Assembly: GCF_029873215.1 (NCBI RefSeq)
Contig: NZ_CP123620.1
Span: forward strand, 3,038,001-3,102,000
DNA length: 64,000 bases
Source: Nocardioides sp. BP30
GTDB taxonomy: Bacteria > Actinomycetota > Actinomycetes > Propionibacteriales > Nocardioidaceae
Reading direction: 5' to 3'
The notes under the pieces were generated by a model that worked only from the letters and a program-made list of their open reading frames with translations, did not search any database and had not been told where the DNA came from. The position numbers and the translations under genes were made by a program. Positions 30,150 to 54,476 of this stretch are shown in pieces (within the stretch, counting starts at the first letter, position 1; each line of letters starts with the position of its first letter).

Positions 30150-31535
30150 ATGAGCGCCTCGGTGCTGTGGTTCCGGCGCGACCTGCGGCTCGGCGACCAT
30201 CCCGCCCTGGATGCCGCGGCCGAGGCAGCGGGCGAGGACGGCGTCGTCCCGCTCTTCGTGCTCGACGACGCGCTGCTGCGCGCCTCCGGACCGGTCCGGA
30301 CCGCCTGGGTGCTGCGCTCGCTGCACGCCCTCGACAGGGATCTGCGCGAGCACGGCACCCGCCTGCTGGTCCGGCACGGCAGGCCCGAACAGGTCGTGCC
30401 GGCGGTCGCCGCCGAGACGGGCGCCGGCAGCGTCCACATCAGCGCCGACTTCGCGCCGTACGGCAAGGAGCGCGACGAGCGCGTGCGCCAGGCGCTCGGC
30501 ACGCTCGACGTGCCCGTCGACCTCACGGCGACGGGCTCGCCCTATGCCGTCGCGCCCGGCCGCGTGCGGACCAGGTCCGGCGGCGCGTTCCAGGTCTACG
30601 GGCCGTTCTACCGGGCGTGGGTCGCGCACGGCTGGCGCGGTCCGGCGCACACCGACGCGAACGGGATCGCGTGGGCGCTCTCCACCTCCTCGCGCAAGGT
30701 GCCCGGCGATCCGCTGCCGAAGGAGCCGGCGATCGGCGACACGGCGCTGCCCGAGGCGGGCGAGGCAGCAGCCCTGGCGACCTGGGCGGACTTCCGCGAC
30801 CGGCTCGCTGACTACCCCGAGGCCCGGGAACGGGCGGACAAGGACGGCAGCTCGCGGCTCTCGCCGTACCTGAAGATCGGCAGCATCCATCCGCGCACCC
30901 TGCTCGCCGGGCTGGGCCCGCACGACGACACCTTCCGGCGCGAGCTGGCGTGGCGGGAGTTCTACGCGGCGGTGCTGGACGCCTGGCCGGCCAGCGCACG
31001 CGACTACTTCCGCCCCGAGCTGCGGGGCCTCCCCTACGTCACGGGGGCAGGGTTGCACGAGCGGCTGGAGGCGTGGCGACAGGGCAGGACCGGCTACCCG
31101 CTGGTCGACGCGGGGATGCGGCAGCTGCTGGCCCAGGGGTGGATGCACAACCGGGTCCGGATGCTGGTCGCGTCGTTCCTGGTCAAGGACCTGCACATCG
31201 AGTGGCAGCACGGTGCCCGGCACTTCCTGCGGCACCTGATCGACGGCGACCTCGCCAGCAACCAGCACAACTGGCAGTGGGTGGCGGGCTGCGGGACCGA
31301 CGCGGCGCCGTACTTCCGGATCTTCAACCCGGTCACCCAGTCGAAGAAGTTCGACCCCGACGGTGCCTACATTCGCCGCTGGATTCCCGAGCTGCGGTCG
31401 CTGGAGGGCCGTGCGGTGCATGAGCCGTGGAAGCTGCCGGACGGTCCGCCGGACGGCTATCCGACGCCGATCGTCGACCACGCCGAGCAGCGTGCCGACA
31501 CGCTGGCGGCGTACGAGGAGCTGCGGCGGGGCTGA
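30150..31535 (+). CDS. phr: Deoxyribodipyrimidine photolyase (CPD photolyase)
   Basis: A 461-residue photolyase/cryptochrome. The N-terminal antenna-binding domain starts with VLWFRRDLRLGDHPAL. The FAD-binding region includes SRLSPYLKIGSIHPR, FRRELAWREFY, GYPLVDAGMRQL, WMHNRVRMLVASFLVKDLHI, and the tryptophan-rich DLASNQHNWQWVAGCGTDAAPYFRIFNP. It repairs cyclobutane pyrimidine dimers using blue light. It follows the MBL gene with a 3-bp gap. Photolyase genes belong to singlet-oxygen regulons in some proteobacteria, which is relevant because a lipid-modifying SigK-type locus begins 0.7 kb downstream. Confidence 0.96.
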   Translation: MSASVLWFRRDLRLGDHPALDAAAEAAGEDGVVPLFVLDDALLRASGPVRTAWVLRSLHALDRDLREHGTRLLVRHGRPEQVVPAVAAETGAGSVHISADFAPYGKERDERVRQALGTLDVPVDLTATGSPYAVAPGRVRTRSGGAFQVYGPFYRAWVAHGWRGPAHTDANGIAWALSTSSRKVPGDPLPKEPAIGDTALPEAGEAAALATWADFRDRLADYPEARERADKDGSSRLSPYLKIGSIHPRTLLAGLGPHDDTFRRELAWREFYAAVLDAWPASARDYFRPELRGLPYVTGAGLHERLEAWRQGRTGYPLVDAGMRQLLAQGWMHNRVRMLVASFLVKDLHIEWQHGARHFLRHLIDGDLASNQHNWQWVAGCGTDAAPYFRIFNPVTQSKKFDPDGAYIRRWIPELRSLEGRAVHEPWKLPDGPPDGYPTPIVDHAEQRADTLAAYEELRRG

Positions 31536-31612: not shown

Positions 31613-31653
31613 TTGGTATGACCATGTTGGTCAGGTGGTACTTGTCATACCAA
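31613..31653. promoter_or_regulatory. 41-bp inverted repeat, candidate operator
   Basis: Outer arms TTGGTATGAC (31613-31622) and GTCATACCAA (31644-31653) are perfect complements. A second inverted repeat, GACCA-TGT-TGGTC (31620-31632), is nested within, and TGGT-ATG-ACCA is itself symmetrical. The half-sites resemble those of GntR/FadR-family regulators. TTGACT lies at 31598-31603. No such regulator gene is adjacent. Confidence 0.55.
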
Positions 31654-32215: not shown

Positions 32216-33016
32216 CTACCGCCGCGGCGGACGCGGGAGGAACATCGAGGTGCGGGCGGCGTACGCGTCCCAGCCCGGCCGGCCCTCCATCCGCTTCTCG
32301 GTCGGCTTCGCGCCGGTGACGACGGTCAGGAACAGCGTCATCACGATCGGCGCCGGCAGCGTGGCGAGCCCGGCGATCGGGCCGGCCGCGAGCGCTCCGG
32401 CGAGCCACAGGCCCCACCAGACGCAGGCGTCGCCGAAGTAGTTCGGGTGGCGGGTCCACGCCCACAGTCCCCGGTCGAGCACGGGTCCACGGTGCTCGTC
32501 GCGGCGGTACGCCGCCAGCTGGGCGTCGCCGACCGCCTCGAAGACGACGCCGACCACCCACACCCCCACACCCAGCGCGACCGCCCACCACCACCGGGTG
32601 TGGGTGGCGACGCCGACCACCACCGGTGCGGAGATCAGCGCCACGGCGAAGCCCTGCAGCGCGAAGACCCGGCGGACGACCGTGCCGAAGCCGACCTCGC
32701 GGAACGAGCCGCCCAGCATCTCCTCGTAGCGCGGGTCGTCATGCCCGGCCGCGCGGACGCGGCTCCACAGGTGGCGGGTCAGGCGCAGGCCCCACAGTGC
32801 GACGAGCACGACCAGCAGCCAGCGCCGCCAGCCCCCGTCGGCACCGATGATCGTGGCCACCACGGCGGTGGCCACCGCCACCAGCACGAAGGCGGCGCCC
32901 CAGGCGGCGTCGACGACGGCGAAGCGCCGCAGGCGGTGCGACCACACGGCCGCTGCGGTCATCACCGCAGCGGCCGCGACCAGCGTGGTCAGCACCAGCT
33001 CCCACGCCGTCGTCAT
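32216..33016 (-). CDS. DUF1295 membrane protein (steroid-reductase-like)
   Basis: A 266-residue protein with about six transmembrane segments and the DUF1295 core: AAWGAAFV, the RLTRHLWSRVRAAGHDDPRY loop, and the NADPH-site-like LWAWTRHPNYFGDACVWWGLWL. The fold is related to 5-alpha-steroid reductases and isoprenylcysteine methyltransferases. It is the counterpart of M. tuberculosis Rv0446c in the SigK locus. ATG 33016 lies 4 bp after the stop of the upstream methyltransferase gene. A role in reducing or modifying membrane lipids is inferred from context. Confidence 0.85.
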   Translation of the reverse strand: MTTAWELVLTTLVAAAAVMTAAAVWSHRLRRFAVVDAAWGAAFVLVAVATAVVATIIGADGGWRRWLLVVLVALWGLRLTRHLWSRVRAAGHDDPRYEEMLGGSFREVGFGTVVRRVFALQGFAVALISAPVVVGVATHTRWWWAVALGVGVWVVGVVFEAVGDAQLAAYRRDEHRGPVLDRGLWAWTRHPNYFGDACVWWGLWLAGALAAGPIAGLATLPAPIVMTLFLTVVTGAKPTEKRMEGRPGWDAYAARTSMFLPRPPRR

Positions 33017-33020
33017 CGAC

Positions 33021-34301
33021 TCACCACTCCCGTCGGGCCGGCAGCGTGTGGGCCGCGCCGGGACGGACCGCGAGGATCTGGTCCACGCCCATCCGGCCGT
33101 CGCGGAAGGCGGCCGAGCCGCCGACCAGATAGAGCCGCCAGACGCGGACCATCTCAGGCCCGACGAGGGCGGTGATCGCGTCGAGGTTCGACTCGAAGCG
33201 CTCGATCCAGCCCGCGACGGTGCGCACGTAGTGCTCGCGCAGGGCGTGCACGTCGCGCACCTCCAGCCCGGCGCGCTCGAGGTAGCCGACCGTCTCCCCG
33301 ACCGGTCGCATGTGCATGTCGGGCGCGATGAACGACTCGATGAACGCGCCGCCGCCGGGACGTCGGCCACGCCTCGACATCTGCTGCACGAGCACGCGGC
33401 CGCCGGGACGGACGGATCGCGCGAGGACGGCGGCGTACGTCGGGTAGTTGCGCTCGCCGACGTGCTCGCCCATCTCGACCGAGGCGACGGCGTCGTAGTG
33501 GCCCGTCGCGTCGCGGTAGTCGCAGAGCCGGACCTCGACCAGGTGCTCGAGCCCCTCGGCGCGGACCCGCTCCTGCACGAAGCGCTGCTGCTCGGCGGCG
33601 ATCGTCAGCCCCACCACGCGGGCGCCGAAGTGCCGGGCCGCGTGGATCGCCAGCGATCCCCATCCACAGCCGACGTCGAGCAGCGTGCTGCCCGCCTCGA
33701 GTCCCAGCTTGGTGCAGATCAGCGACAGCTTGGCATGCTGCGCCTGCTCCAGCGTCGTCGTCTCGTCGGCGTAGTAGCCACAGGAGTAGGCCATCGACGG
33801 GTCGAGGATCAGCGCGTAGAAGTCGGTCGAGAGGTCGTAGTGGTGGTGGATCGACTCGCGATCGCGGGCCTGGGAGTGCAACCGGCCGCGGACCCGCGCC
33901 TGGGTGACCGGCGCGGCCGGTGGAGCGCCGACCAGGCGCAGCTCCCGGGCCAGGCCGGTGAGCCGGGCCAACGCGGTCGCCGACGCCTTCAACGAGGGTC
34001 GGCCGACGGTCTGGCCCACGGAGAGGAGCAGGGAGAGCGTCTCGTCCAGGTCGCCGGGCAGGTCCGCCTCACCGGTGACGTACGCCTGGGCGGCGCCGAG
34101 CTCGCCGGGGTGCCAGAGCATCCGCCGCAACGCGTCGGGTGAGGAGATGACCACCTCGGGGGCATCCTCGGGTCCGGCGGACGAGCCGTCCCAGGCGCGC
34201 AGCCGGACGGGCAGCTCCCCGACGATCGGCTCGACGACCGCGGCCAGCCGCGGAGCGATCGGGTCGGCGCCCGACGCTCCTGACACAAGGGCGGTGCTCA
34301 T
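33021..34301 (-). CDS. Cyclopropane-fatty-acid-synthase-type methyltransferase, paralogue 2
   Basis: A 426-residue SAM methyltransferase of the CFA synthase family. An N-terminal lipid-binding domain precedes IHHHYDLSTDFYALILDPSM. The motif YSCGYY retains the cysteine that CFA and mycolate cyclopropane synthases use near the bicarbonate site. The SAM motif is LLDVGCGWGSLA and the late acidic ASVEMGEHV segment is present. It would methylate or cyclopropanate unsaturated acyl chains of membrane lipids. Counterpart of UfaA1 (Rv0447c). Its ATG overlaps the stop of the neighbouring paralogue (34298-34301). Confidence 0.9.
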   Translation of the reverse strand: MSTALVSGASGADPIAPRLAAVVEPIVGELPVRLRAWDGSSAGPEDAPEVVISSPDALRRMLWHPGELGAAQAYVTGEADLPGDLDETLSLLLSVGQTVGRPSLKASATALARLTGLARELRLVGAPPAAPVTQARVRGRLHSQARDRESIHHHYDLSTDFYALILDPSMAYSCGYYADETTTLEQAQHAKLSLICTKLGLEAGSTLLDVGCGWGSLAIHAARHFGARVVGLTIAAEQQRFVQERVRAEGLEHLVEVRLCDYRDATGHYDAVASVEMGEHVGERNYPTYAAVLARSVRPGGRVLVQQMSRRGRRPGGGAFIESFIAPDMHMRPVGETVGYLERAGLEVRDVHALREHYVRTVAGWIERFESNLDAITALVGPEMVRVWRLYLVGGSAAFRDGRMGVDQILAVRPGAAHTLPARREW

Positions 34302-35557
34302 GCGGTTGCCTCTCGCTCGTAGCGCAGTTGCAGGTCGTCGAGGTAGCCCGCGACGAAGCCGGCCCGGGAGTACTCCAGGTAGAAGTGCCACATCCGTTCG
34401 AAGACGCCGTCGAAGCCCAGCGCCGCCACCTCGGTGCTGGCCGCCCGGAAGCGCTCGTCCCACTGCCGCAGCGTCTCCGCATAGTGCGCACCCAGCGAGG
34501 TGCGGTGGGTCATCCGCAGGCCGTGCTCACCGGCGCTGTGGGCCAACGCCTCCTCCGAGGGCAGGAAGCCGCCGGGGAAGATGTACTTGTTGATCCAGGT
34601 GTAGGAGTCGCGGGTCGCCAGCATCTGCCGGTGCGGCATGGTGATCGCCTGCAGGGCCACAGCGCCGTACGGCGCCAGCAGCCGATCCAGGGTGCCGAAG
34701 TAGGTCCCCCAGTGCCGCCAGCCGACGGCCTCGATCATCTCGACCGAGACGATCGCGTCGTACTGGCCCTGGATTTCGCGGTAGTCGCACAGCTCGACCT
34801 CGATGCGGTCGCTCAGCCCGGCGGCAGCGATCCGCTCCATGGCCAGCGCCCGCTGCTCGACCGAGAGGGTGACGGTGTGGACCTGAGCGCCGCGCTCGGC
34901 CGCCATGATCGCCAGCTGCCCCCAGCCGGTGCCGATCTCCAGCAGCCGGGTGCCGTGCCCGACCCGGGCGAGGTCCAGCAGCGCGTCGATCTTGCGTCGC
35001 TGCGCGTGCTCGAGGTCGTCGCCGATCGCCGGACGGCCGTCGGCGTAGGCCCGGAACCAGGCTGCCGAATAGGACATGGTCGGGTCGAGGAAGAGCGCGA
35101 AGAACTCGTTGGACAGGTCGTAGTGGTGCGCGATGTTGCGCTGGGTGTCGCGGCGCGCACCACGGTCGCGTGCCGGCGTGCGCGGCATCGCCAGACCCCG
35201 CACCGCCTGCAGCCAGCGCGGCGTCAGGTGCTCGACCTCGGCGGCGAGCACGGCGAGGAAGCCTGCGAGGTCCTCCGCGTCCCACGCTCCGGTGAGATAG
35301 GCCTCGCCGAATCCGACCAGTTTGTCGCGACCCAGCCGGGCGAAGAACTCCTCGGGACGGTGGATCACCATCTCGGGGCCGCCCCGTCCCACCGTACGGC
35401 CCTCGAGCCGCACGGTGACGTCGAGTCGCTCGACCGCGTGCACGAAGAGCCGCCGGGCGATCCTCGCGGTGACCGCGACGGCCGGGCCGCTCGGCACCCG
35501 GTCGAGATGGGCCCAGCTGGCGCGTGGGCTCTGCACGGGCTGGTCGGTGGTGGTCAT
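34298..35557 (-). CDS. Cyclopropane-fatty-acid-synthase-type methyltransferase, paralogue 1
   Basis: A 419-residue CFA-synthase-family protein with AHHYDLSNEFFALFLDPTM, the SAM motif LLEIGTGWGQLA and VSVEMIEAVG. Where its neighbour has YSC it reads YSAAWF, so the active-site cysteine position is alanine. This suggests a different reaction, such as methyl or methylene transfer without ring closure; that is inference. Overlapping ATGA codons join it to the FAD/DUF1365 gene upstream and to paralogue 2 downstream, so all are co-translated in one operon. Confidence 0.9.
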   Translation of the reverse strand: MTTTDQPVQSPRASWAHLDRVPSGPAVAVTARIARRLFVHAVERLDVTVRLEGRTVGRGGPEMVIHRPEEFFARLGRDKLVGFGEAYLTGAWDAEDLAGFLAVLAAEVEHLTPRWLQAVRGLAMPRTPARDRGARRDTQRNIAHHYDLSNEFFALFLDPTMSYSAAWFRAYADGRPAIGDDLEHAQRRKIDALLDLARVGHGTRLLEIGTGWGQLAIMAAERGAQVHTVTLSVEQRALAMERIAAAGLSDRIEVELCDYREIQGQYDAIVSVEMIEAVGWRHWGTYFGTLDRLLAPYGAVALQAITMPHRQMLATRDSYTWINKYIFPGGFLPSEEALAHSAGEHGLRMTHRTSLGAHYAETLRQWDERFRAASTEVAALGFDGVFERMWHFYLEYSRAGFVAGYLDDLQLRYEREATA

Positions 35558-37647
35558 CGCACGCCTTCCTGGTGGTGGACGGGTCGGGCTTGAAGGGGCA
35601 GACCGCGGGTCCACAGCCGGATGCCGTGGAGCCGGATCAGGAGGGCGTCGCGGAGACCGGCGAGGCCGGCGGCGCGCGCTGCCGCGCTCCCCGGCGCGAC
35701 CCGGCGGCCGCTCAGCGAGGCGCTGAACGGTGCGCCGCCGGCGGTGCGCAGCCGCACCGCGATGTCGAGCCGATCGGTCGGCACGGGCGCTCGGACGTCG
35801 TACTCTCCGTCGACGCCGTGGAAGGGCGAGACGTACATCTGCTTGGCCAGCGGCTCCTGCCGCTCGGGGTCGAGTAGGTAGGCATGCCGGTCGCCGTAGG
35901 TGTTGTGCACCTCCACGACGGTGGCCAGCGGGCTGCCGTCCTCGCGGTGGCACCAGAACACGCTGATCGGGTTGAAGCAGAAGCCGAATGCCCGCGGGTG
36001 CGCCGCGAGCAGCACCCGACCCTGACCCAGGACGACGTCGTGCCGGGCGAGGAAGCGGGTGAGGTTCTCCCGCACGCTGAGCGCCGGGTCGCCGAGGTGG
36101 TCGCGCGGCTCGATGCTGCCGCGCCACCACGCCCGCCACCGGTCGCGACGGGTGCGCGTCGGGGGCAGCCGGTCGAGGTCGACCACCCAGAGGTTGGAAC
36201 GGTGCACGAACTCCCGGCGCCACGGCGTACGGCGCAGATGCCGCACCGTGGTGGCGTACACGACCGGATCGACCGGATCGACCGGCTCCGGCCGGGAAAC
36301 GGGCTCCTCGGTGGCAGCTGTCGGGGACCCGGGCGCCGCGGCTGCGGAGCCCCCGGGTGCGGGGGCGAGCCGCACCGGCGTGGTGAAGCCGAGCCGGTGC
36401 GCCGCCTCCAGCCCCGACCGGGCACCGTCCTCGTGGAAACCCCAGCCGTGGTAGGCGCCGGCGAACGCGACCCTCGGCGTCTCGATCTCGGGCAGTCGCG
36501 CCTGCGCGGCGACCGACTCCGGCGTGTAGAGGGGGTGCTCGTAGGACATCCGGTCGATCACGGTGGCGGGGTCGACCAGGTCCTCCCCACCGAGCGTGAC
36601 CAGGTAGTGGACGTCGGTGTCGAGGCGCTGGAGCCGGGTCAGGTCGTAGGTGACGACCACCGGTCCCTCCTCGTCGCGGACGCGCCGGAAGTTCCACGAG
36701 GACCAGGCGCCTCGGGCCTGGGGCAGTAGCGAGGTGTCGGTGTGCAGAAGCGCGCTGTTGCTGGAGTAGCCCATCGCGCCGAGCACTTCGCGCTGCAGCG
36801 CGGTGGGATCGGGCAGCATCGCCAGTGCCTGGCCCGGGTGGGCGGCGATGATGACGGCGTCGTACTCCTGGGCGGTGCCGTCCTGGGTGCGCACACGCAC
36901 GCCGCCGCTGTGCTCGCGCACCTCGGCGACGGGCGACCCGAGCCTGATCTCGTCCAGCCGCTCGGCGATCCTGCGCACGTACTCCCGCGAGCCGCCCGTC
37001 ACCGTCCGCCAGGTCGGGCTGCCCGTGATGGAGAGCATGCCGTGGTGCTGCAGGAAGCGGAACAGGTAGCGAGCCGGGTAGGCGGTCGCCACCCGGGGGT
37101 CACACGACCACACCGCCGCGACCAGCGGCTCCATGAAGTCGCGGACGAACCGCGCCGAGAAGCCGCCCTCGGCCAGGAAGGCGGCCAGCGTCTGGTCGGC
37201 ACCGCCCGGTGACGCGTCGTCGGCCGCGAGAAGAGTGCGCGCGCGACGGTGGAAGCGCGGGATCTCGGAGAGCATCCGCAGGTGACCGCTGTCGGTGAGC
37301 CGGGCCGCGGTCGGGAAGATCCCCCGCAGCCCGCGGGCGCCGGCCCACTCCACGCCGCGGCGCGGGTCGCTGATCGACATCGACATCTCGGACGCCTGGG
37401 TGGCAACCCCCAACTCGTCGAAGATGCGGGTCAGCACCGGGTAGGTGCGCAGGTTGTGCACGATGAAGCCGGTGTCGATCGCGAGGGTGCGTCCGCCCTC
37501 GTGCACCTCGTGGGTGTCGGCGTGCCCACCCAGTCGGTCCGCGGCCTCGTACAGGGTCACCTCGGCCGCGACGCGGCACTCGTAGGCAGCCACGAGTCCC
37601 GCCACGCCCGAGCCGATCACGGCTACGCGCGCCCGCGTGTGATGCAT
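35554..37647 (-). CDS. FAD-dependent amine-oxidase-like protein fused to DUF1365
   Basis: A 697-residue two-domain protein. Residues 1-425 form an FAD/NAD(P)-binding amine-oxidase-type flavoprotein (VAVIGSGVAGLVAAYE, ADRLGGHADTHEV, and a late FAGAYHGWGFHEDGARSG). An Ala/Pro/Glu linker (about 430-465) joins a complete DUF1365 domain (VYATTVRHLRRTPWRREFVHRSNL..., FGFCFNPISVFWCHRE, KQMYVSPFHGVDGEYDV). In M. tuberculosis these are separate neighbours, Rv0449c and Rv0448c. GGAGGAA lies 4 nt before the ATG. It leads the lipid operon and a SigK-like promoter lies about 50 bp upstream. The reaction is unknown; desaturation or oxidation of acyl chains is plausible. Confidence 0.9.
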   Translation of the reverse strand: MHHTRARVAVIGSGVAGLVAAYECRVAAEVTLYEAADRLGGHADTHEVHEGGRTLAIDTGFIVHNLRTYPVLTRIFDELGVATQASEMSMSISDPRRGVEWAGARGLRGIFPTAARLTDSGHLRMLSEIPRFHRRARTLLAADDASPGGADQTLAAFLAEGGFSARFVRDFMEPLVAAVWSCDPRVATAYPARYLFRFLQHHGMLSITGSPTWRTVTGGSREYVRRIAERLDEIRLGSPVAEVREHSGGVRVRTQDGTAQEYDAVIIAAHPGQALAMLPDPTALQREVLGAMGYSSNSALLHTDTSLLPQARGAWSSWNFRRVRDEEGPVVVTYDLTRLQRLDTDVHYLVTLGGEDLVDPATVIDRMSYEHPLYTPESVAAQARLPEIETPRVAFAGAYHGWGFHEDGARSGLEAAHRLGFTTPVRLAPAPGGSAAAAPGSPTAATEEPVSRPEPVDPVDPVVYATTVRHLRRTPWRREFVHRSNLWVVDLDRLPPTRTRRDRWRAWWRGSIEPRDHLGDPALSVRENLTRFLARHDVVLGQGRVLLAAHPRAFGFCFNPISVFWCHREDGSPLATVVEVHNTYGDRHAYLLDPERQEPLAKQMYVSPFHGVDGEYDVRAPVPTDRLDIAVRLRTAGGAPFSASLSGRRVAPGSAAARAAGLAGLRDALLIRLHGIRLWTRGLPLQARPVHHQEGVR

Positions 37648-37694
37648 CCGTTCCTCCGCGCTCCCTGGGGACCCGTCGTGGGCTCTCATGCGTT

Positions 37695-37721
37695 CTTCGG
37701 GGCCGCGGCGGATCCGGATGG
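37695..37721 (-). promoter_or_regulatory. SigK-like promoter of the lipid operon
   Basis: Read on the minus strand, CCATCC (37716-37721) is followed after 15 bp by CCGAAG (37695-37700). The fasciclin-sigK promoter candidate has the same spacing and nearly the same hexamers. From memory, mycobacterial SigK promoters are of CCATCC...CGAAT type. Transcription would start about 40 bp before the ATG at 37647. Confidence 0.6.
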
Positions 37722-37725
37722 GTGG

Positions 37726-37753
37726 CGATCCGATACGACTTCCGGCTCCGAAC
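37726..37753 (+). promoter_or_regulatory. Possible SigK-like promoter of the molybdoenzyme gene
   Basis: CGATCC (37726-37731) and CCGAAC (37748-37753) are separated by 16 bp, each one base off the elements at 39391. The -10-like element ends 7 bp before the ATG at 37761, consistent with a leaderless transcript. It overlaps the region of the opposite-strand promoter. Confidence 0.4.
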
Positions 37754-37760
37754 ACCCTCC

Positions 37761-39383
37761 ATGAGCAACGAGCCGGCCGGCCATCAGTACCCACCGCCGC
37801 TTCTCCCAGCACCGCCCCGACCCGCGGGTCGGCGGCGCGGGGCGTTCGCCACGGCGCTGTGGCTGCTCGTGGGGCCCGTCACCGGCGGCCTCGGGCTCGC
37901 GGCCGGCCATCTCGTCGCCGCCCTCACGACCCCGGCCGCCTCACCGGTGCTCGCGGTCGGCTCCACGGTGATCGACCGTACCCCGACATCGCTCAAAGAG
38001 TGGGCGATCGCCCACTTCGGCACCCACGACAAGACCATCCTGGTCGGCTCGGTGCTGGTGGTGGTGCTCCTGCTCTCCACGGCCGTCGGCCCCCTCGCCC
38101 GCCGGCGCGCGGTGTACGGCGCGGCAGCCCTCGTGCTGCTCGCCGGCATCGCCGCCGCCTGCGCGCTGCGGCGTCCGGAGGCCTCGGCCGGCGCCGCCGT
38201 GCCGAGCCTGGTGGCGGGTGTCGTGGCGGTGCTCGCCCTCATGCTGGTGCTGCGACTGCAGGCGCGGCATGTCCGCCCCTCCTCGACCGGGGAGGCGGTC
38301 GGGGGCGGGCAGACACGCGGCCCGCGCTCCTCCCGGCGGACCCTCGTCGTCCTCGGCGCGCTGGCTGCGCTCGCCGCGGCGCTCGGCGAGACGGGTCGCC
38401 TGGTGATCGCGCGCCGGGCGCGAGCCGAGGATGTCACGCTGCCGGCCCCGGCGGAGCCGGCGCCGGCGTTCCCGGCCGGCATCGACCGCACCGTCCCCGG
38501 CATCACCGCCTTCCGCACGCCGGCCAGCAGGTTCTACCGCGTGGACACCCGCCTCGACGTGCCGGTGGTCGACAGCGACGGCTGGTCCCTGCGCATCGAC
38601 GGCGACGTCGCCCGGCCCTTCGAGATCGACTACCGCGAGCTCCTGGCGATGCCGATGATCGAGCGCGACATCACCCTGACCTGCGTCTCCAACAGCGTCG
38701 GCGGCCCGTACGTCGGTGGCGCGCGCTGGCTCGGGGTGCGCCTCAGCGATCTGCTCGAGCGGGCAGGGGTCGGCCACTCCGCCGACCAGATCCTGAGCAC
38801 CGATTTCGCCGGCATGACGATCAGCACCCCGCTGGCCCTGGCGACCGACGGCCGCGACGCCATGGTCGCCGTCGGCATGAACGGCGCACCGCTCCCCCGC
38901 GCCCACGGATTCCCGGCCCGGTTGGTGATCCCCGGTCTGTACGGCTTCATCAGCGCCACCAAGTGGGTGACCAGGCTGACGCTGACCACCTACGCGCAGC
39001 ACAGCGCCTACTGGACCGACCGCGGCTGGGCCACCGATGCACCGATCAAGATCTCGAGCCGGATCGACACCCCGCGACCGCTGGCCAGCGTCAAGCGCGG
39101 CGACCAGGTGCTCGGCGGCGTCGCCTGGGCCCAGCAGAACGGCGGTGTGGCCAAGGTGGAGGTCAGCATCGACGGCGGACCCTGGACGGCCGCGCACCTC
39201 GGACCCTCGGCCGGCAACGACTACTGGCGGCAGTGGTACGCCCCGTGGCGGGCCACTCCGGGCACGCACACGCTGGCCTGCCGCGTCGTCGACGGGGCGG
39301 GTCAGACCCAGACGCCGGTGCGGGCCGAGCCGTTCCCGTCCGGCGCCAGCGGCGTGCAGACGATCACCGTGAGTGTGGCGTGA
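37761..39383 (+). CDS. Membrane-anchored sulfite-oxidase-family molybdoenzyme
   Basis: A 540-residue protein. The first 250 residues hold about five transmembrane segments. The extracytoplasmic molybdopterin-binding domain starts near GITAFRTPASRFYRVDT and contains the cofactor cysteine in LTCVSNSVGG and the ARWLGVRLSDLLE and RLVIPGLYGFISATKWV segments. A C-terminal Ig-like dimerisation domain (AWAQQNGGVAKVEVSIDGG) follows. The family oxidises or reduces small sulfur or nitrogen compounds; the substrate here is unknown. The start is ATG 37761, matching a leaderless promoter. It stands between the lipid operon and the fasciclin-sigK-rskA genes, ending 83 bp before the fasciclin start. Confidence 0.88.
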   Translation: MSNEPAGHQYPPPLLPAPPRPAGRRRGAFATALWLLVGPVTGGLGLAAGHLVAALTTPAASPVLAVGSTVIDRTPTSLKEWAIAHFGTHDKTILVGSVLVVVLLLSTAVGPLARRRAVYGAAALVLLAGIAAACALRRPEASAGAAVPSLVAGVVAVLALMLVLRLQARHVRPSSTGEAVGGGQTRGPRSSRRTLVVLGALAALAAALGETGRLVIARRARAEDVTLPAPAEPAPAFPAGIDRTVPGITAFRTPASRFYRVDTRLDVPVVDSDGWSLRIDGDVARPFEIDYRELLAMPMIERDITLTCVSNSVGGPYVGGARWLGVRLSDLLERAGVGHSADQILSTDFAGMTISTPLALATDGRDAMVAVGMNGAPLPRAHGFPARLVIPGLYGFISATKWVTRLTLTTYAQHSAYWTDRGWATDAPIKISSRIDTPRPLASVKRGDQVLGGVAWAQQNGGVAKVEVSIDGGPWTAAHLGPSAGNDYWRQWYAPWRATPGTHTLACRVVDGAGQTQTPVRAEPFPSGASGVQTITVSVA

Positions 39384-39390
39384 GTCGCAC

Positions 39391-39417
39391 CCATCCATCG
39401 GCGTACCTGCTCCGAAT
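39391..39417 (+). promoter_or_regulatory. SigK-like promoter of fasciclin-sigK-rskA
   Basis: CCATCC (39391-39396), 15 bp, CCGAAT (39412-39417), about 50 bp before the fasciclin ATG. This is the best match in the window to the mycobacterial SigK promoters that drive mpt83 and mpt70. It would place sigK under its own control. Confidence 0.65.
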
Positions 39418-39466
39418 CACTGCCAGAACCTCGTACCCGAGCTCGACTCACCTGGAAGGCATCACC

Positions 39467-40150
39467 ATGAAGATCTCCACCCTGCGTCGCTCCGGCACCG
39501 TCCTCGCCACCGCCGCCGTCCTCGGCCTCGGTCTGACCGCCTGCGGCAGCAACGACAACACCGCTGCCACCGACAGCACCGCGAGCTCGAGCTCGATGAG
39601 CTCGATGGACTCCAGCTCGATGGGCGCGAGCTCGATGGACTCCAGCTCGGCCGCGACCGGCATGACGAACGCCGGCTCGCAGACGTTCGGCCCCGGCTGC
39701 TCCTCGATCCCGACCAGCGGCGCCGGCTCCTTCGACGGCATGGTCAAGGACCCGGTGGCGACGGCGGCGAGCAACAACCCGCTGCTCAGCACGCTGGTCA
39801 CAGCCGTCGGCAAGGCCGGCCTGGTCGACACGCTCAACGGCGCCGATGGCCTGACGGTCTTCGCCCCCACCAACGACGCCTTCGCCAAGCTGCCCAAGGC
39901 GACGCTGAAGAAGGTCCTGGCCAACAAGAAGATGCTCACCGCCATCCTCACCCACCACGTCGTGGCCGGCCAGCTCGACCCGACCAAGGTCGTCGGCACC
40001 CAGACCACCCTCGACAAGGACACGGTGACGGTGAAGGGCGACACCAACGGCATGACCGTCGATGGTGCGAAGGTGTTGTGTGGCAACATCCCCACCGCGA
40101 ACGCGACCGTCTACGTCATCGACTCGGTGCTCATGCCCAAGGGCATGTGA
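39467..40150 (+). CDS. Fasciclin-domain lipoprotein (MPT83/MPT70-like)
   Basis: A 227-residue lipoprotein: signal MKISTLRRSGTVLATAAVLG, lipobox LTAC, a low-complexity Ser/Met/Asp linker (residues 35-65), then a single FAS1 domain (TLVTAVGKAGLVDTLNGADG, LTVFAPTNDAFAKLP, ILTHHVVAGQL, TANATVYVIDSVLMPKGM). In M. tuberculosis the related MPT83 and MPT70 are the dominant SigK-dependent antigens, thought to act in adhesion or envelope structure. GGAAGG lies upstream of the ATG. A SigK-like promoter precedes it and sigK follows 27 bp after the stop, so this is probably the main output of the sigma factor. Confidence 0.92.
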   Translation: MKISTLRRSGTVLATAAVLGLGLTACGSNDNTAATDSTASSSSMSSMDSSSMGASSMDSSSAATGMTNAGSQTFGPGCSSIPTSGAGSFDGMVKDPVATAASNNPLLSTLVTAVGKAGLVDTLNGADGLTVFAPTNDAFAKLPKATLKKVLANKKMLTAILTHHVVAGQLDPTKVVGTQTTLDKDTVTVKGDTNGMTVDGAKVLCGNIPTANATVYVIDSVLMPKGM

Positions 40151-40177
40151 CGCCAGCCTGACGAGGATCGAGGAGAG

Positions 40178-40783
40178 ATGAGCGACCTCAGGCCTGTGCC
40201 GGGCGGCGCCCCCGAGGAGGGGGTGCCGTCCGGCCCCGACCTGGCCGCACTGCTGCGCCGCTCGGCGCGCGGCGACGAGAGCGCCTTCGCCGAGGTGTAC
40301 GACGCCGTCTCGGCCAAGGTGTACGGCCTGGCCGTGCGGGTGGTCAGGGACCCGGCGCAGGCCGAGGAGGTCGCTCAGGAGTCGTTCCTCGAGGTCTGGC
40401 GGATGGCATCGCGGTTCGACCCCGACCGGGGCAGCCCGATGGCCTGGATCCTCACCATCGTCCACCGTCGGGCGGTCGACCGGGTGCGTTCGGCCGAGTC
40501 GGCCACCCGCCGCGACGCGGTCTACCACGACCGCAACCGGTCGGTCAGCCACGACGAGACAGCCGAGGCCGCGACGGCCTCGCTGGAGGCGCACCGGGTC
40601 CGGTCCGCTCTGGCGACGCTCACCGAGGTCCAGCGCGAGGCGGTCGAGCTGGCCTACCTGCAGGGCTACACCCATACCGAGATAGCCCGGACGCTCGATC
40701 TGCCGATCGGCACCGCCAAGACCAGGATCAGGGACGGCCTGATCAGACTACGAGACACGATGGGAGTGGGGAGCGGACGATGA
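40178..40783 (+). CDS. sigK: ECF sigma factor, SigK type
   Basis: A 201-residue group IV sigma factor. Region 2 (AFAEVYDAVSAKVYGLAVRVVRDPAQAEEVAQESF, then VWRMASRFDPDRGSPMAWIL) recognises the -10 element. Region 4 (LTEVQREAVELAYLQGYTHTEIA...GTAKTRIRDGLIRLRD) recognises the -35. Neighbour context (RskA-type anti-sigma gene with ATGA overlap, fasciclin lipoprotein upstream, UfaA1/DUF1365/DUF1295 operon) identifies it as the SigK lineage rather than SigE or SigH. GAGGAGAG precedes the ATG. It is probably held inactive by the downstream membrane anti-sigma factor. Confidence 0.92.
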   Translation: MSDLRPVPGGAPEEGVPSGPDLAALLRRSARGDESAFAEVYDAVSAKVYGLAVRVVRDPAQAEEVAQESFLEVWRMASRFDPDRGSPMAWILTIVHRRAVDRVRSAESATRRDAVYHDRNRSVSHDETAEAATASLEAHRVRSALATLTEVQREAVELAYLQGYTHTEIARTLDLPIGTAKTRIRDGLIRLRDTMGVGSGR

Positions 40784-41493
40784 GCACTGACATCCACGCC
40801 CTGTCGGGCGCCTATGCCATCGACGCCCTCGACGACGAGGAGCGGGCCGACTTCGAGCGTCACCTCGCCGACTGCCCGACCTGCCAGGCCGAGGTCGACG
40901 GGCTGCGCGAGGCGGCCACGACCCTCGCCGAGCTGCACACGGCGGAGCCTCCCGCGGCGCTGCGCCAGCACGTGCTGGACAGCATCCGGGTCGTCCGCCC
41001 CCTGCCGCCGGTCGTCGAACCCATCAGGCGCTCCGCCACCGGCGTACGGCGCCGGTGGATCGGGCTCGTCGCCGCGGCCGTTGTCGCGATCGCGCTCGGT
41101 GGTGCAGTCTGGCACCCGTGGACGAACCCTGCCGAGCAGCCGGAGTCAGGTGTGCTGGCGCAGATCGAGCGGGCTCCCGACGTCCAGCGCTTCACCACCC
41201 ACGGCCCGGGCAACGCCACCGTCACCGTCTACCGCTCGGTCTCGCTGAACGAGGCCGCGGTCGAGGCCCACGATCTGGGCCAGGCCCCGGACGGGAAGGT
41301 CTACCAGGTCTGGCTGCAGAACACCGCTGGCGCGATGGTCCCGGCCGGCTTCCTGGCACCAGGCACCAGCACCGCTACCGCTCTCAATGGCGATGCCTCC
41401 GCCGCCGAGGGCGCCGGCATCACCGTCGAGCCGGCCGGTGGCTCACCGGCACCGACCTCGGATCCGGTCGCGCTGGTGGCCTTCACCACCTGA
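40780..41493 (+). CDS. rskA: Anti-sigma-K factor RskA
   Basis: A 237-residue membrane protein. The N-terminal anti-sigma domain has a HxxxCxxC motif (RHLADCPTC) near residue 30. One transmembrane segment (about residues 92-111, IGLVAAAVVAIALGGAVW) and an extracytoplasmic RskA domain (VYRSVSLNEAAVEAHDLGQAPDGKVYQVWLQ) follow. It would bind SigK at the membrane until regulated proteolysis releases it. Overlapping ATGA codons couple it to sigK. In M. tuberculosis complex, rskA changes control MPT70/83 levels, so this pair probably controls the whole locus. Confidence 0.9.
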   Translation: MSTDIHALSGAYAIDALDDEERADFERHLADCPTCQAEVDGLREAATTLAELHTAEPPAALRQHVLDSIRVVRPLPPVVEPIRRSATGVRRRWIGLVAAAVVAIALGGAVWHPWTNPAEQPESGVLAQIERAPDVQRFTTHGPGNATVTVYRSVSLNEAAVEAHDLGQAPDGKVYQVWLQNTAGAMVPAGFLAPGTSTATALNGDASAAEGAGITVEPAGGSPAPTSDPVALVAFTT

Positions 41494-41502
41494 CCAGACC
41501 GG

Positions 41503-41544
41503 GCGGTGCCCTGATGGCGGTGCCCTGATGGCGGTGCGCTGATG
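41503..41544 (+). repeat. Three 14-bp tandem repeats forming overlapping mini-ORFs before the cyclase start
   Basis: The unit GCGGTGCCCTGATG occurs twice exactly (41503, 41517) and once with one change (41531). Each carries TGATG, so four-codon frames Met-Ala-Val-Pro or Met-Ala-Val-Arg start at 41514 and 41528. The stop of each overlaps the start of the next, ending at the cyclase ATG (41542). Confidence 0.85.
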
Positions 41545-42390
41545 GCGCTGTTCTGGGCGCTGGCGCTCGCGCTGGTGGCCGCCCTGGTCGCCGTCCTCCT
41601 CGGAGCCGGCGTGGCGCTGCGGCGGCGCGACACCGAGCTCGTCGCGGCGCGCGCCCGTATCGCCGAGTTGGAGTCGGCGGTGCTGCGACTCGAGGCGACG
41701 GCGGACGGCGATCGGTCGGACCCCCGCGCGGTCCGGGTCGCCCGGACCGCCGCCCGCGCCGTGGTCGGCACGGCCGGGAGATGGCGCGAAGGCGGCGTCA
41801 GCGGTCTGGTGGCCGCCTCGCTGGACGATCTCGCCCGACTCGTCACCGAGGACCGGATCGAGATCGAGCGGGTCGCCACGCCTGACGGCACCGTGACGGT
41901 GCTCTTCTCCGACATCGTCGACTCCACGGCCCGCAACGAGCTGCTCGGCGACAGGCGCTGGCTCGGGGTGCTCCACGCCCACGACACGGTGGTCCGTCGC
42001 GAGGTCGAGGCCCGCCGCGGCCACGTGGTGAAGTCCCAGGGCGACGGCTACATGGTCGTCTTCCCCGACGCGCTCGCCGGGGTGCGGGCGGCGCTCGCGA
42101 TCCAGGAACGCCTTCCCGCCGCTCGCCGACTGCGCCGGGCCGACATCCACGTCCGGATCGGCCTCCACACCGGCCGTGTCCTCTCCCACGACGGCGACTA
42201 CTTCGGTCGCAACGTGGCCCTCGCCGCGCGGGTCGCAGCGCACGGGGCCGCCGACGACGTCCTGGTCAGCGACGCCGTCCGCGATGTCATCGCCCACGCG
42301 CCGGGCCTCACCCTCGAGCTCCGCAGCACCACCGAGCTCAAGGGCCTCGCCGGCGAGCACCGGCTCTGGTCGGTCGCCGCCCTCGCCTGA
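41542..42390 (+). CDS. Membrane-anchored class III nucleotide cyclase-like protein
   Basis: A 282-residue protein with one N-terminal transmembrane segment (residues 3-25), a short coiled region, and a class III adenylate/guanylate cyclase domain from about residue 112. Both metal aspartates are visible (VLFSDIVDST and SQGDGYMVVF) and the base-binding lysine precedes the second. The usual transition-state asparagine (VNxAAR) reads VALAAR, so activity may be altered. It lies 48 bp after rskA behind three overlapping mini-ORFs, so its translation may depend on re-initiation and be tied to the sigK transcript. Confidence 0.85.
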   Translation: MALFWALALALVAALVAVLLGAGVALRRRDTELVAARARIAELESAVLRLEATADGDRSDPRAVRVARTAARAVVGTAGRWREGGVSGLVAASLDDLARLVTEDRIEIERVATPDGTVTVLFSDIVDSTARNELLGDRRWLGVLHAHDTVVRREVEARRGHVVKSQGDGYMVVFPDALAGVRAALAIQERLPAARRLRRADIHVRIGLHTGRVLSHDGDYFGRNVALAARVAAHGAADDVLVSDAVRDVIAHAPGLTLELRSTTELKGLAGEHRLWSVAALA

Positions 42391-42480: not shown

Positions 42481-45179
<2,699 letters not shown>

Positions 45180-45186
45180 GGCCGCG

Positions 45187-45217
45187 AGTCTTCCCCGCAA
45201 TCTTGAAAGAGTCAAGA
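45187..45217 (-). promoter_or_regulatory. furA-katG promoter with Fur-type operator
   Basis: On the minus strand TTGACT (45210-45215) and AAGACT (45187-45192) are 17 bp apart. A perfect inverted repeat TCTTGA-5-TCAAGA (45201-45217) overlaps the -35. The arrangement matches the autoregulated furA promoters described in mycobacteria. Confidence 0.7.
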
Positions 45218-45258
45218 AAACTTCGACGGCGCGCCGCCCACATTTCGTTGAATCCCAG

Positions 45259-45285
45259 GGAACCGACCGACCGACTCGCTGCGTC
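45259..45285 (+). promoter_or_regulatory. ECF-type promoter of the SigE-family sigma gene
   Basis: GGAACC (45259-45264), 17 bp, CGTC (45282-45285): the classic ECF sigma pattern. It lies 34 bp before the ATG of an ECF sigma gene, suggesting autoregulation. An inverted repeat CTGTC-A-GACAG follows just downstream. Confidence 0.6.
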
Positions 45286-45318
45286 GTACTGTCAGACAGC
45301 GTTCAGGGAGGGGCGGGG

Positions 45319-45822
45319 ATGCAGCACGAGCGGGAGTACGCCGCGTTCGTCGCCGAACGCTGGCCGACGCTGCTGCGCTCCGCCGTGTTCCTCGGCGCCA
45401 CTCCGGACGAGGCCGAGGACCTGGTCCAGGTCACGCTGGTGCTCTGCTACCGCAAGTGGCACCTGGTCCGAACCGCCGAGAACCGGGACGGCTACGTGTA
45501 CCGCATGCTGCTCAACGTGCTGCGCTCGGACCGCCGCTCAGCCTGGCACCGCATCCGCAGTCCCCGCGAGGCCACCGATCAGCCCGTGGCCGACACCACG
45601 GAGGCCACCGAGATCGCCGATGCTGTCCACCGGGCGCTCGCGACCCTGTCGAAGGAGCAGCGCGAGGTGGTCGTGCTGCGCTACTTCGTGCAGCTCAGCG
45701 AGGCTCAGACCGCGGCCGCGCTCGGCATTCCCGCGGGCACCGTGAAGAGCCGACTCGCCCGCTCCCTGGCGCAGCTGAGCGCCAACGACCATCTCGCCGA
45801 CGTCACCGGAGGCAGGTCATGA
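45319..45822 (+). CDS. ECF sigma factor, SigE-family (actinobacterial 170-residue class)
   Basis: A 167-residue sigma factor with region 2 (EYAAFVAERWPTLLRSAVFLGATPDEAEDLVQVTL) and region 4 (LATLSKEQREVVVLRYFVQLSEAQTAAALGIPAGTVKSRLARSLAQL). It belongs to the short SigE-family group that usually pairs with a downstream membrane protein. GGGAGGGGCGGGG precedes the ATG. The downstream beta-propeller gene overlaps its stop (ATGA). An ECF-like promoter upstream suggests autoregulation. It is divergent from furA, with a shared 139-bp control region. Signal unknown. Confidence 0.9.
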   Translation: MQHEREYAAFVAERWPTLLRSAVFLGATPDEAEDLVQVTLVLCYRKWHLVRTAENRDGYVYRMLLNVLRSDRRSAWHRIRSPREATDQPVADTTEATEIADAVHRALATLSKEQREVVVLRYFVQLSEAQTAAALGIPAGTVKSRLARSLAQLSANDHLADVTGGRS

Positions 45823-54260: not shown

Positions 54261-54283
54261 TCATGGGTCGAGGACCCTGTCGG

Positions 54284-54356
54284 TGGAGCTGAGGGGACTC
54301 GAACCCCTGACCCTCTGCATGCCATGCAGATGCGCTACCAGCTGCGCCACAGCCCC
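54284..54356 (-). tRNA. tRNA-Ala (GGC), copy 1
   Basis: A 73-nt cloverleaf read on the minus strand: acceptor GGGGCUG...CAGCUCC, D arm with GCUGGUAGC, anticodon stem UCUGC/GCAGA with loop AUGGCAU (anticodon GGC, reading GCC), and T arm GGUUCGAGUCCC. CCA is not encoded. It is identical to the copy 120 bp away. Confidence 0.96.
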
Positions 54357-54403
54357 GTGTTCAGTTGAAGCCGACGATCTCCGCCGCAGCGACCATCGTC
54401 CGG

Positions 54404-54476
54404 TGGAGCTGAGGGGACTCGAACCCCTGACCCTCTGCATGCCATGCAGATGCGCTACCAGCTGCGCCACAGCCCC
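54404..54476 (-). tRNA. tRNA-Ala (GGC), copy 2
   Basis: The same 73-nt sequence as copy 1, transcribed first of the pair. The 47-bp spacer between them is unrelated to the sequence before copy 2, so the duplication covers the tRNA and only a few flanking bases. GCC is a very frequent alanine codon in a GC-rich genome, which may explain the extra copy. Confidence 0.96.

What the first reader, a model, noticed from the sequence alone, without database searches (positions are those of the whole stretch)
32216..42390. Compact SigK-type regulon: lipid-modifying operon, molybdoenzyme, fasciclin lipoprotein, SigK/RskA and a membrane cyclase in one locus
Seen: a minus-strand operon (FAD oxidase-DUF1365 fusion, two CFA-type methyltransferases, DUF1295) back to back with a plus-strand set (molybdoenzyme, fasciclin lipoprotein, ECF sigma, anti-sigma, cyclase). 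Known: in M. tuberculosis SigK controls Rv0449c-Rv0446c and the fasciclin antigens MPT83/MPT70, held by RskA. Related lipid genes belong to singlet-oxygen regulons in Rhodobacter. Inferred: this locus is a self-contained envelope-stress module coupling acyl-chain modification, a secreted redox enzyme and a surface adhesin-like protein, possibly extended to cyclic-nucleotide signalling and to the photolyase upstream.
Basis: partly seen in the sequence, partly recalled or inferred. Interest (0 to 1): 0.75.

Follow-up and report, generated by a model that had tools for sequence, protein, structure and literature searches.

The report
SigK-controlled membrane photo-oxidation gene module
A soil bacterium carries, in one compact self-regulated block, the stress switch best known from the tuberculosis bacillus together with a predicted pathway for making antioxidant membrane lipids, which suggests that this long-unexplained switch may answer to light damage.

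Summary
The sigma/anti-sigma pair is a SigK/RskA pair and the fasciclin lipoprotein an MPT70/MPT83 relative. A SigK-type promoter precedes the fasciclin gene in 24 of 31 loci, related ones included (0.7 expected). In this single-contig 4.28-Mb genome C[CA]ATCC-N15-CCGAA occurs exactly twice, once before each arm. In all 28 other genomes of the genus sample that have the FAD-DUF1365 fusion it lies one gene's length from sigK; here, and in two named near relatives, the lipid operon is moved and inverted but has its own SigK site. The fusion corresponds to UfaD joined to UfaO, which make furan fatty acids (singlet-oxygen scavengers) in Rhodobacter; homologues sit beside rpoE-chrR on two alphaproteobacterial plasmids. 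A photolyase lies near SigK in eight genomes of three other families. My reading: a light/singlet-oxygen membrane-protection module under SigK-RskA. SigK lacks the redox cysteine pair of M. tuberculosis SigK; RskA keeps a zinc motif. The cyclase is not a conserved part. Against: SigK and UfaD also occur apart, the fusion lies away from SigK in three genomes of another genus, and SigK control of the molybdoenzyme is weakly supported. Chemistry and signal are inferred, not shown.

The parts
30150..31535 (+). DNA photolyase (FAD-binding + antenna domain); recurrent neighbour of SigK loci, not shown to be SigK-driven here
   Evidence: Pfam PF03441 2e-82 and PF00875 1.1e-42; matches at the SigK locus in L042, L043, L045, L066 and L125; within 10 kb of SigK in 8 genomes of families f19, f20, f40; no SigK motif upstream
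32216..33016 (-). DUF1295 membrane protein, steroid-5-alpha-reductase-like; last gene of the lipid operon (Rv0446c type, recalled)
   Evidence: PF06966 1.6e-55, PF02544 25.6 bits over its 22.6 cut-off; same last position in the complete loci
33021..34301 (-). CFA-type SAM methyltransferase b
   Evidence: PF02353 4.9e-82 (on the longer ORF)
34298..35557 (-). CFA-type SAM methyltransferase a (52% to the methyltransferase beside UfaD/UfaO on a Streptomyces plasmid, 56% to the first of two on a Rhodococcus plasmid)
   Evidence: PF02353 1.4e-82 (on the longer ORF)
35554..37647 (-). Fused UfaD-UfaO: FAD desaturase domain (residues 1-about 430), linker, DUF1365 oxygenase domain (residues 462-697)
   Evidence: Pfam PF01593 + PF07103; in frame and stop-free in 13 of 20 loci, these 13 in Nocardioides and genus g5; all 120 listed of 7966 homologues, the query among them, carry both domains; DUF1365 residues invariant in 19 rows are kept
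37696..37721 (-). SigK-type promoter CCATCC-N15-CCGAA of the lipid operon
   Evidence: one of only 2 matches in the genome; same in L042 and L043
37726..37752 (+). Variant SigK-type site CGATCC-N16-CCGAA, 8 nt before the molybdoenzyme ATG (leaderless mRNA possible, inferred)
   Evidence: same in L042 and L043; only 2 of 21 loci reach 10 of 11 before the molybdoenzyme
37761..39383 (+). Membrane-anchored, probably extracytoplasmic sulfite-oxidase-family molybdoenzyme; about 5 TM helices by eye, twin-arginine-like motif before the last
   Evidence: PF00174 2.6e-40; best solved relative SorA sulfite dehydrogenase; loose RR pattern in 21 of 21 proteins scored, window included, and a TCVSN motif
39391..39416 (+). 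SigK-type promoter CCATCC-N15-CCGAA of fasciclin-sigK-rskA
   Evidence: 24 of 31 loci have a 10-11 of 11 match before the fasciclin gene, 0.7 expected; one of 2 in the genome
39467..40150 (+). Fasciclin (FAS1) lipoprotein of MPT83/MPT70 type, Met/Ser-rich linker
   Evidence: PF02469 1.8e-30; best solved relative MPT70, 3.3e-41
40178..40783 (+). ECF sigma factor SigK, without any cysteine
   Evidence: NCBIfam SigK 263.5 bits, cut-off 226; PDB SigK 161 bits, next 89
40780..41493 (+). Anti-sigma factor RskA with zinc motif HLADCPTC and RskA_C domain
   Evidence: PF10099 2.4e-23, PF22618, PF13490; PDB RskA
41542..42390 (+). Class III adenylate/guanylate cyclase with one N-terminal TM helix (by eye); neighbour, not core
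   Evidence: PF00211 6.6e-17; of the loci compared only L042 and L043 share it at this place

Best explanation
A SigK-RskA-controlled envelope-protection module. At rest, membrane-bound RskA holds SigK by its cytoplasmic anti-sigma domain. A signal acting on RskA (most likely a light-generated oxidant such as singlet oxygen; inferred) frees SigK, which transcribes fasciclin-sigK-rskA (positive feedback), the divergent lipid operon and, less certainly, the molybdoenzyme. The lipid operon adds a methyl group to membrane acyl chains (CFA-type enzymes as UfaM), desaturates them (FAD domain as UfaD) and closes a furan ring with O2 (DUF1365 domain as UfaO), the last two steps on one polypeptide. Furan fatty acids trap singlet oxygen in the membrane. 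The fasciclin lipoprotein and the exported molybdoenzyme act outside the membrane; their substrates are unknown. Shown by sequence: gene identities, promoter sites, module conservation, fusion. Inferred: enzyme chemistry, signal, order of events.
For: SigK/RskA identity. Promoter footprint and only two strict sites in the genome. Module conservation; outside the family UfaD lies within 15 kb of a listed SigK in 12 of 13 f19 and 5 of 5 f20 genomes that have UfaD. UfaD/UfaO homologues directly beside an ECF sigma and a ChrR-family gene on Aminobacter and Azospirillum plasmids, with a CFA-type gene in Azospirillum. UfaM, UfaD and UfaO chemistry, with DUF1365 named as the UfaO domain: PMC7380195 passages. 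A SigK/RskA-like pair in R. capsulatus is induced by singlet oxygen: PMC7074977 passages. Light induces the fasciclin genes of M. kansasii and the SigK stimulus is called obscure: PMC9861118 passages. Photolyase recurrence.
Against: No expression or lipid data. UfaO identity to the two ChrR-linked DUF1365 proteins is 31% and, over part of the domain, 40%; UfaD 41-42%; the Rhodobacter proteins themselves were not compared. UfaD and SigK often occur apart: in families f3, f13, f17 and f33 no listed UfaD lay near a listed SigK; 7 of 36 genus genomes have SigK without the fusion; three g19 genomes (G056, G088, G134) have an apparently fused gene away from SigK. Before UfaD only 4 of 20 loci have a strong SigK site; in the collinear loci SigK control of the operon assumes read-through from upstream. 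Before the molybdoenzyme only 2 of 21 do. 18 of 21 Nocardioides and g5 loci lack the photolyase. In M. kansasii the light effect was small (6- and 3-fold), dipZ did not respond, and SigK dependence was not shown. M. tuberculosis UfaA1 was reported to make 10-methylstearate in vitro (PMC5660069 passage). An Agrococcus makes a furan fatty acid, but without a beta-methyl group and its authors found no UfaO homologue (PMC9323897 passages).
Confidence: 0.58

Rival explanations
1. The lipid operon makes methyl-branched or cyclopropane (tuberculostearate-like) acids, not furans; SigK adjusts membrane order under general envelope stress.
For: The CFA-type enzymes are profile relatives of cyclopropane synthases, below the curated cut-offs. 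UfaA1 of M. tuberculosis was reported to make 10-methylstearate from crude extracts in vitro (PMC5660069 passage).
Against: The established 10-methyl pathway genes are described as distinct from ufaA1 (PMC7791843 passage); that their FAD enzyme is of another type is recalled. A DUF1365 domain fused to the FAD enzyme has no known role in that pathway, whereas it is the ring-forming enzyme in furan synthesis (PMC7380195 passages).
Confidence: 0.25
2. SigK-RskA here answers to a cytoplasmic thiol or zinc redox signal through the Hx3Cx2C motif of RskA, in place of the cysteine pair of M. tuberculosis SigK.
For: No cysteine at the 133/183 positions in any Nocardioides SigK examined; zinc motif in 63 of 72 RskA rows and zinc-finger domain in all 120 listed homologues.
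Against: The zinc motif also coexists with the cysteine pair in related genera, so it is not a replacement. In PMC7406223 passages the AS19-1 group mixes zinc and non-zinc members and a structural role is suggested. RskA has a conserved C-terminal domain outside the cytoplasm.
Confidence: 0.3
3. The fasciclin lipoprotein is a methionine sink recycled by the molybdoenzyme, as in MrpX-MsrPQ systems under ECF16 sigma factors.
For: Met-rich linker here and in L042 (5 and 7 Met); an ECF sigma, a molybdoenzyme and a Met-rich protein together recall Brucella BcrXQP (PMC8315932 passages).
Against: The other linkers that could be cut out have 0-3 Met; about half of the fasciclin rows could not be cut by the script, some of these with a few Met. 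The molybdoenzyme is nearer to sulfite dehydrogenases than to MsrP.
Confidence: 0.07
4. The whole locus including the cyclase is one envelope-stress unit coupled to cyclic-nucleotide signalling.
For: The cyclase starts 48 bp after rskA on the same strand.
Against: Of the loci compared only L042 and L043 share it; spacing to rskA varies there; no SigK site of its own.
Confidence: 0.1

Closest known systems
SigK-RskA regulon of Mycobacterium tuberculosis (Rv0449c-Rv0444c, mpt83, mpt70)
   Different: FAD and DUF1365 fused; two methyltransferases; molybdoenzyme as frequent partner; SigK without the Cys133/Cys183 pair; zinc motif in RskA; photolyase nearby
RpoE-ChrR singlet-oxygen regulon of Rhodobacter sphaeroides (ECF11)
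   Same: Same kind of enzyme set as output (UfaM, UfaD, UfaO, photolyase) and a zinc anti-sigma domain
   Different: Different sigma clade (RpoE and the two ChrR-linked sigmas form their own clade); ChrR is soluble with a cupin domain (recalled), RskA is membrane-bound; UfaD and UfaO separate
Furan fatty acid pathway UfaM-UfaD-UfaO (PMC7380195)
   Same: FAD and DUF1365 proteins and a CFA-type methyltransferase as the enzyme set
   Different: Bifunctional fusion, second methyltransferase, DUF1295; product not shown
BfaA/BfaB (tms) 10-methylstearate pathway of actinobacteria
   Same: FAD enzyme plus CFA-type methyltransferase
   Different: Described as distinct from ufaA1-type genes; no DUF1365 (recalled)

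Membership tests
ECF sigma factor SigK | Scores above the curated SigK profile cut-off | tested here: met
   NCBIfam NF007228 263.5 bits against 226; next subfamily 136.8, below its own cut-off
ECF sigma factor SigK | Groups with M. tuberculosis SigK, apart from RpoE-ChrR sigmas | tested here: met
   Tree of 29 rows: 16-row clade 94/88 with Mtb SigK inside, RpoE and two ChrR-linked sigmas in a separate 100/99 clade; inner fork only 86/81, several long branches
ECF sigma factor SigK | Redox cysteine pair 133/183 | tested here: not met
   No cysteine in this SigK; of 76 rows (65 distinct sequences) 11 have both, no Nocardioides among them. PMC7509140 passages report the pair in 94% of ECF18 and 56% of ECF19 members, so it is common but not defining
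Anti-sigma factor RskA | RskA_N and RskA_C domains, gene next to sigK | tested here: met
   PF22618 and PF10099 over cut-off; genes overlap by 4 nt; helices resemble the AS19-1 consensus printed in PMC7406223
SigK regulon | SigK-type promoter before the fasciclin gene | tested here: met
   24 of 31 loci at 10-11 of 11, loci partly near-identical; the consensus itself was recalled and then supported by this footprint
SigK regulon | Transcription depends on SigK | not testable with these tools
   No expression data for this organism
UfaM-UfaD-UfaO furan fatty acid pathway | FAD desaturase, DUF1365 protein and CFA-type methyltransferase encoded together | tested here: met
UfaM-UfaD-UfaO furan fatty acid pathway | Homology to genes of an RpoE-ChrR locus | tested here: met
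   UfaD 41-42%, UfaO 31% and 40% (partial) to the genes beside an ECF sigma and a ChrR-family anti-sigma on Aminobacter and Azospirillum plasmids; Rhodobacter sequences not compared
UfaM-UfaD-UfaO furan fatty acid pathway | Furan fatty acids formed | not testable with these tools
   Needs lipid analysis
MsrP/MsrQ with Met-rich sink | MsrP-type catalytic subunit and Met-rich partner | tested here: not met
   SorA 100.7 bits against MsrP 47.8, both below cut-off; Met-rich linker not conserved where it could be read
RpoE-ChrR (ECF11) | ECF11 sigma | tested here: not met

The most novel reading that the evidence does not exclude
SigK-RskA is an actinobacterial light/singlet-oxygen response whose main output is furan fatty acids, made here by a bifunctional desaturase-oxygenase. 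The same enzyme cassette has come under two different ECF systems, RpoE-ChrR and SigK-RskA. The MPT70/MPT83-Rv0446c-Rv0449c regulon of the tuberculosis bacillus would then descend from a photo-oxidation module.
Probability: 0.43. Interest if true: 0.75.

Novelty: new variant of a known kind. Interest (0 to 1): 0.55.

Why it matters
The stimuli of SigK, a regulator of major mycobacterial antigens, are described as obscure (PMC9861118 passage). Reading its lipid operon as UfaM-UfaD-UfaO gives a definite chemical product and a definite stimulus to test, in a soil genus where the regulon appears to sit in one 10-kb block with two strict promoters. It also offers a natural fusion of two little-studied enzymes (UfaD and the DUF1365 oxygenase; no credible solved relative of DUF1365) for biochemistry, and a cysteine-free SigK with full-length RskA for studying how RskA signals.

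Tried and rejected
Methionine-sink idea (Met-rich fasciclin plus molybdoenzyme as in MrpX-MsrPQ): rejected. Simple swap of redox sensing from SigK cysteines to RskA zinc: rejected because related genera have both. Cyclase as core: rejected. Extra-locus regulon: relaxed patterns gave 11 matches (6 for the reversed control) and 18 matches (3 for the control), 2 and 3 of them in this locus. Of the 15 others, one (N16, G000:C1:107586-107612) has a GCTCCGAA tail and lies just before a plausible secreted-protein start without a Pfam match; five others also precede an open frame by 200 nt or less but looked less convincing by eye; left open. DUF1365 structure: the sequence profile found only hits I judge spurious and no fold was obtained. 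Papers: search 29 (Rv0449c with furan) and one search (DUF1365, cyclopropane, sigma, Actinobacteria) found 0 papers; one search found 512 papers with two of three terms, and in the 15 listed 'furan fatty acid' does not occur; PMC7380195 holds no mention of mycobacteria or actinobacteria. Veyrier 2008 and Dufour 2008 are not held, so priority cannot be excluded. An error of mine: the UfaO query was one residue because of a wrong split; corrected. Proximity counts were read by eye from the printed tables; the match tables of 16, 34, 35, 56 and 82 are cut off, so class-level counts are lower bounds; the SigK-UfaD gaps of 29 genomes were recomputed and the cysteine and zinc rows recounted. The expectations come from 20 first-order Markov randomisations of each upstream region.
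Full report
Observation. On the minus strand, four genes with overlaps or gaps of at most 4 bases: FAD oxidase-DUF1365 fusion, two CFA-type methyltransferases, DUF1295. Back to back on the plus strand: an Oxidored_molyb protein, a fasciclin lipoprotein, an ECF sigma factor, RskA and a class III cyclase. The organism is taken to be a Nocardioides from its nearest named locus (L042, Nocardioides sp. Iso805N, SigK 94% identical), and genus g1 of the genome searches to be Nocardioides (inference).

Regulator identity. The sigma factor passes the curated SigK profile (263.5 bits, cut-off 226), its best solved relative is M. tuberculosis SigK (161 bits, next 89 for Rhodobacter RpoE), and it falls in the SigK clade in a 29-row tree (94/88, inner fork 86/81, several long branches). 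RskA has both RskA domains and hits the SigK-RskA complex; its helices HALSGAYAIDAL and LDDEERADFERHL resemble the AS19-1 consensus printed in PMC7406223 (PMC7509140 calls the M. tuberculosis protein ECF18). The fasciclin protein is closest to MPT70 (3.3e-41).

Promoters. The consensus CCATCC...CCGAA was recalled and then tested. Upstream of the fasciclin gene 24 of 31 loci carry a 10-11 of 11 match with 15- or 16-base spacing (23 of the 24 have 15), against 0.7 expected from Markov randomisations; the second base is C or A. The 31 loci include the window and close relatives (seven Microbacterium), so they are not independent. Other genes: before sigK 13 of 46 (0.65 expected), before UfaD 4 of 20 (0.3), before the molybdoenzyme 2 of 21 (0.15). 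In this genome C[CA]ATCC-N15-CCGAA occurs twice, at 37696-37721 (-) before the lipid operon and at 39391-39416 (+) before fasciclin-sigK-rskA, with none for the reversed control. A third, N16 variant (37726-37752, +) ends 8 nt before the molybdoenzyme ATG and is kept in L042 and L043. The spacing implies that the ATG at 37689 lies within the promoter region and that 37647 is the likely start (inference).

Module conservation. In genus g1, SigK is found in 36 of 36 genomes, the molybdoenzyme within 3.2 kb of it in 34 of 36 (exceptions G108, G131), and the fusion in 29 of 36. In 28 of these 29 the fusion lies 716 to at most 1000 bases from sigK, the room of one rskA gene; the window is the only outlier in the sample (2531 bases). 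The complete order molybdoenzyme, fasciclin, sigK, rskA, UfaD-UfaO, two methyltransferases, DUF1295 is seen in L044, L046, L112, L115, L116, L117, L119 and L121. Here and in the named relatives L042 and L043, which are not in that sample, the lipid operon has been inverted to the other side, yet has a perfect SigK site: control seems kept although gene order was not. In the class sample of 296 genomes UfaD is found in 76, 58 of them outside family f1; within 15 kb of a listed SigK in 12 of 13 f19 and 5 of 5 f20 genomes, and in none of the listed cases of f3, f13, f17 and f33 (SigK list cut off). SigK itself is in 172 of these 296 genomes, so many SigK genomes lack UfaD.

The lipid operon. [quoted passage not shown] tblastn of the window fusion finds adjacent FAD oxidoreductase and DUF1365 genes on plasmids; on one Aminobacter and one Azospirillum plasmid they sit directly beside an ECF sigma and a ChrR-family anti-sigma gene, in Azospirillum followed by a CFA-type gene. 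A Cupriavidus plasmid has FAD, DUF1365, CFA-type, DUF1295 and photolyase genes with a TetR regulator; Rhodococcus and Streptomyces plasmids have FAD, DUF1365, CFA-type, DUF1295 in that order without sigK in view. Identity to the ChrR-linked proteins is 41-42% (UfaD) and 31% and, over part of the domain, 40% (UfaO). The fusion is in frame and stop-free in 13 of 20 loci, all Nocardioides or genus g5; the other 7 are separate genes. The 120 listed of 7966 homologues (8000 candidates scored) all carry both domains. By shared open frames the gene also looks fused in three g19 genomes (G056, G088, G134), where it is not near SigK, and looks split in one g5 genome (G084). The FAD domain profile is nearest to LkcE among solved structures; for DUF1365 no credible solved relative was found.

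Signal. Literature pointers to light or singlet oxygen: the R. capsulatus RpoE/ChrR pair shares more identity with M. tuberculosis SigK/RskA than with R. sphaeroides RpoE/ChrR and is induced by singlet oxygen (log2 3.7 and 3.4; PMC7074977 passages), although R. capsulatus lacks RSP_1087-1091 homologues; light raises mpk83 and mpk70 of M. kansasii 6- and 3-fold, not dipZ (PMC9861118 passages); the Rhodobacter enzymes belong to the RpoE regulon of the singlet-oxygen response. In genomes, a photolyase match lies at the SigK locus in the window, L042, L043, L045, L066 and L125, and within 10 kb of SigK in 8 further genomes of families f19, f20 and f40 (G186, G218, G244, G411, G292, G310, G295, G385), plus beside UfaD without a listed SigK in G324, G338 and G354 (lists cut off). 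Against: 18 of the 21 Nocardioides and g5 loci lack it, and here it has no SigK site. One actinobacterium, Agrococcus, is reported to make a furan fatty acid, but of a type without beta-methyl and with no UfaO homologue found (PMC9323897 passages).

Sensing. Activation of M. tuberculosis SigK needs Cys133 and Cys183 (PMC7509140 passages). Of 76 locus rows (65 distinct sequences) 11 have both, none of them Nocardioides. RskA has Hx3Cx2C in 63 of 72 rows, including every Nocardioides row read; the 9 without are Microbacterium, Agrococcus and Streptomyces NP160 rows, 5 of them matched only in the C-terminal part. All 120 listed homologues carry the zinc-finger domain, while the M. tuberculosis chain lacks the motif. 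The published disulfide mechanism therefore cannot work here as described. Cysteine-free SigK has been described before, in Nocardia, with truncated RskA (PMC7509140).

Other parts. The molybdoenzyme has about five membrane helices by eye, a twin-arginine-like motif (loose pattern RRxx[LVIAMGF]) before the last in 21 of 21 proteins scored, and the cysteine expected to bind molybdenum (a 22nd, L113, was dropped because its motif reads CVSTS). It is nearer to SorA/SoxC than to MsrP but below all cut-offs, so its substrate is unknown. The cyclase was found at this place only in the window, L042 and L043.

Verdict. SigK regulons are known; this one is a compact variant with a fused UfaD-UfaO, a molybdoenzyme partner and a cysteine-free SigK. 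The furan reading of the SigK lipid operon was not found by two searches nor among the 15 papers listed by one search, but two key older papers were not held.

Noticed in passing
window 42481-44736 (-) and 44733-45215 (-): katG and a Fur-family regulator lie next to the module, convergent with the cyclase, also in L042 and L043. PMC7509140 mentions a report that SigK influences katG in M. tuberculosis; no SigK site was found here.
   Followed up: partly
window 45178-45822 (+): A second ECF sigma factor (SigE-fam_strep profile, 141.2 bits, just under its 141.55 cut-off), its ORF start overlapping the start of the fur gene on the other strand.
   Followed up: no
G000:C1:107586-107612 (-): N16 SigK-like site 11 nt before a GTG and shortly before the ATG of a 226-residue secreted-looking protein without Pfam match; possible extra regulon member.
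   Followed up: partly
window about 41500-41545: Three head-to-tail copies of about 14 bases (GGTGCCCTGATGGC, the last with one change) run into the cyclase start codon, giving alternative ATGs.
   Followed up: no
window about 31613-31653: Inverted repeat TTGGTATGAC...GTCATACCAA between photolyase and lipid operon (seen), possibly an operator.
   Followed up: no
window 39467-40150: Linker of the fasciclin lipoprotein is Met/Ser-rich here and in L042, but mostly acidic with 0-3 Met in the other linkers that could be cut out.
   Followed up: yes
window 37761-39383: Polytopic molybdoenzyme with a twin-arginine-like motif before its last membrane helix, in 21 of 21 proteins scored: possible two-route (Sec then Tat) membrane insertion.
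   Followed up: partly
window 54282-54356 and 54402-54476 (-): Two tRNA-Ala(GGC) genes in tandem.
   Followed up: no
L131 12301-13612: Second CFA-type gene of the Rhodococcus plasmid matches in two pieces and is not in the gene table; perhaps broken.
   Followed up: no
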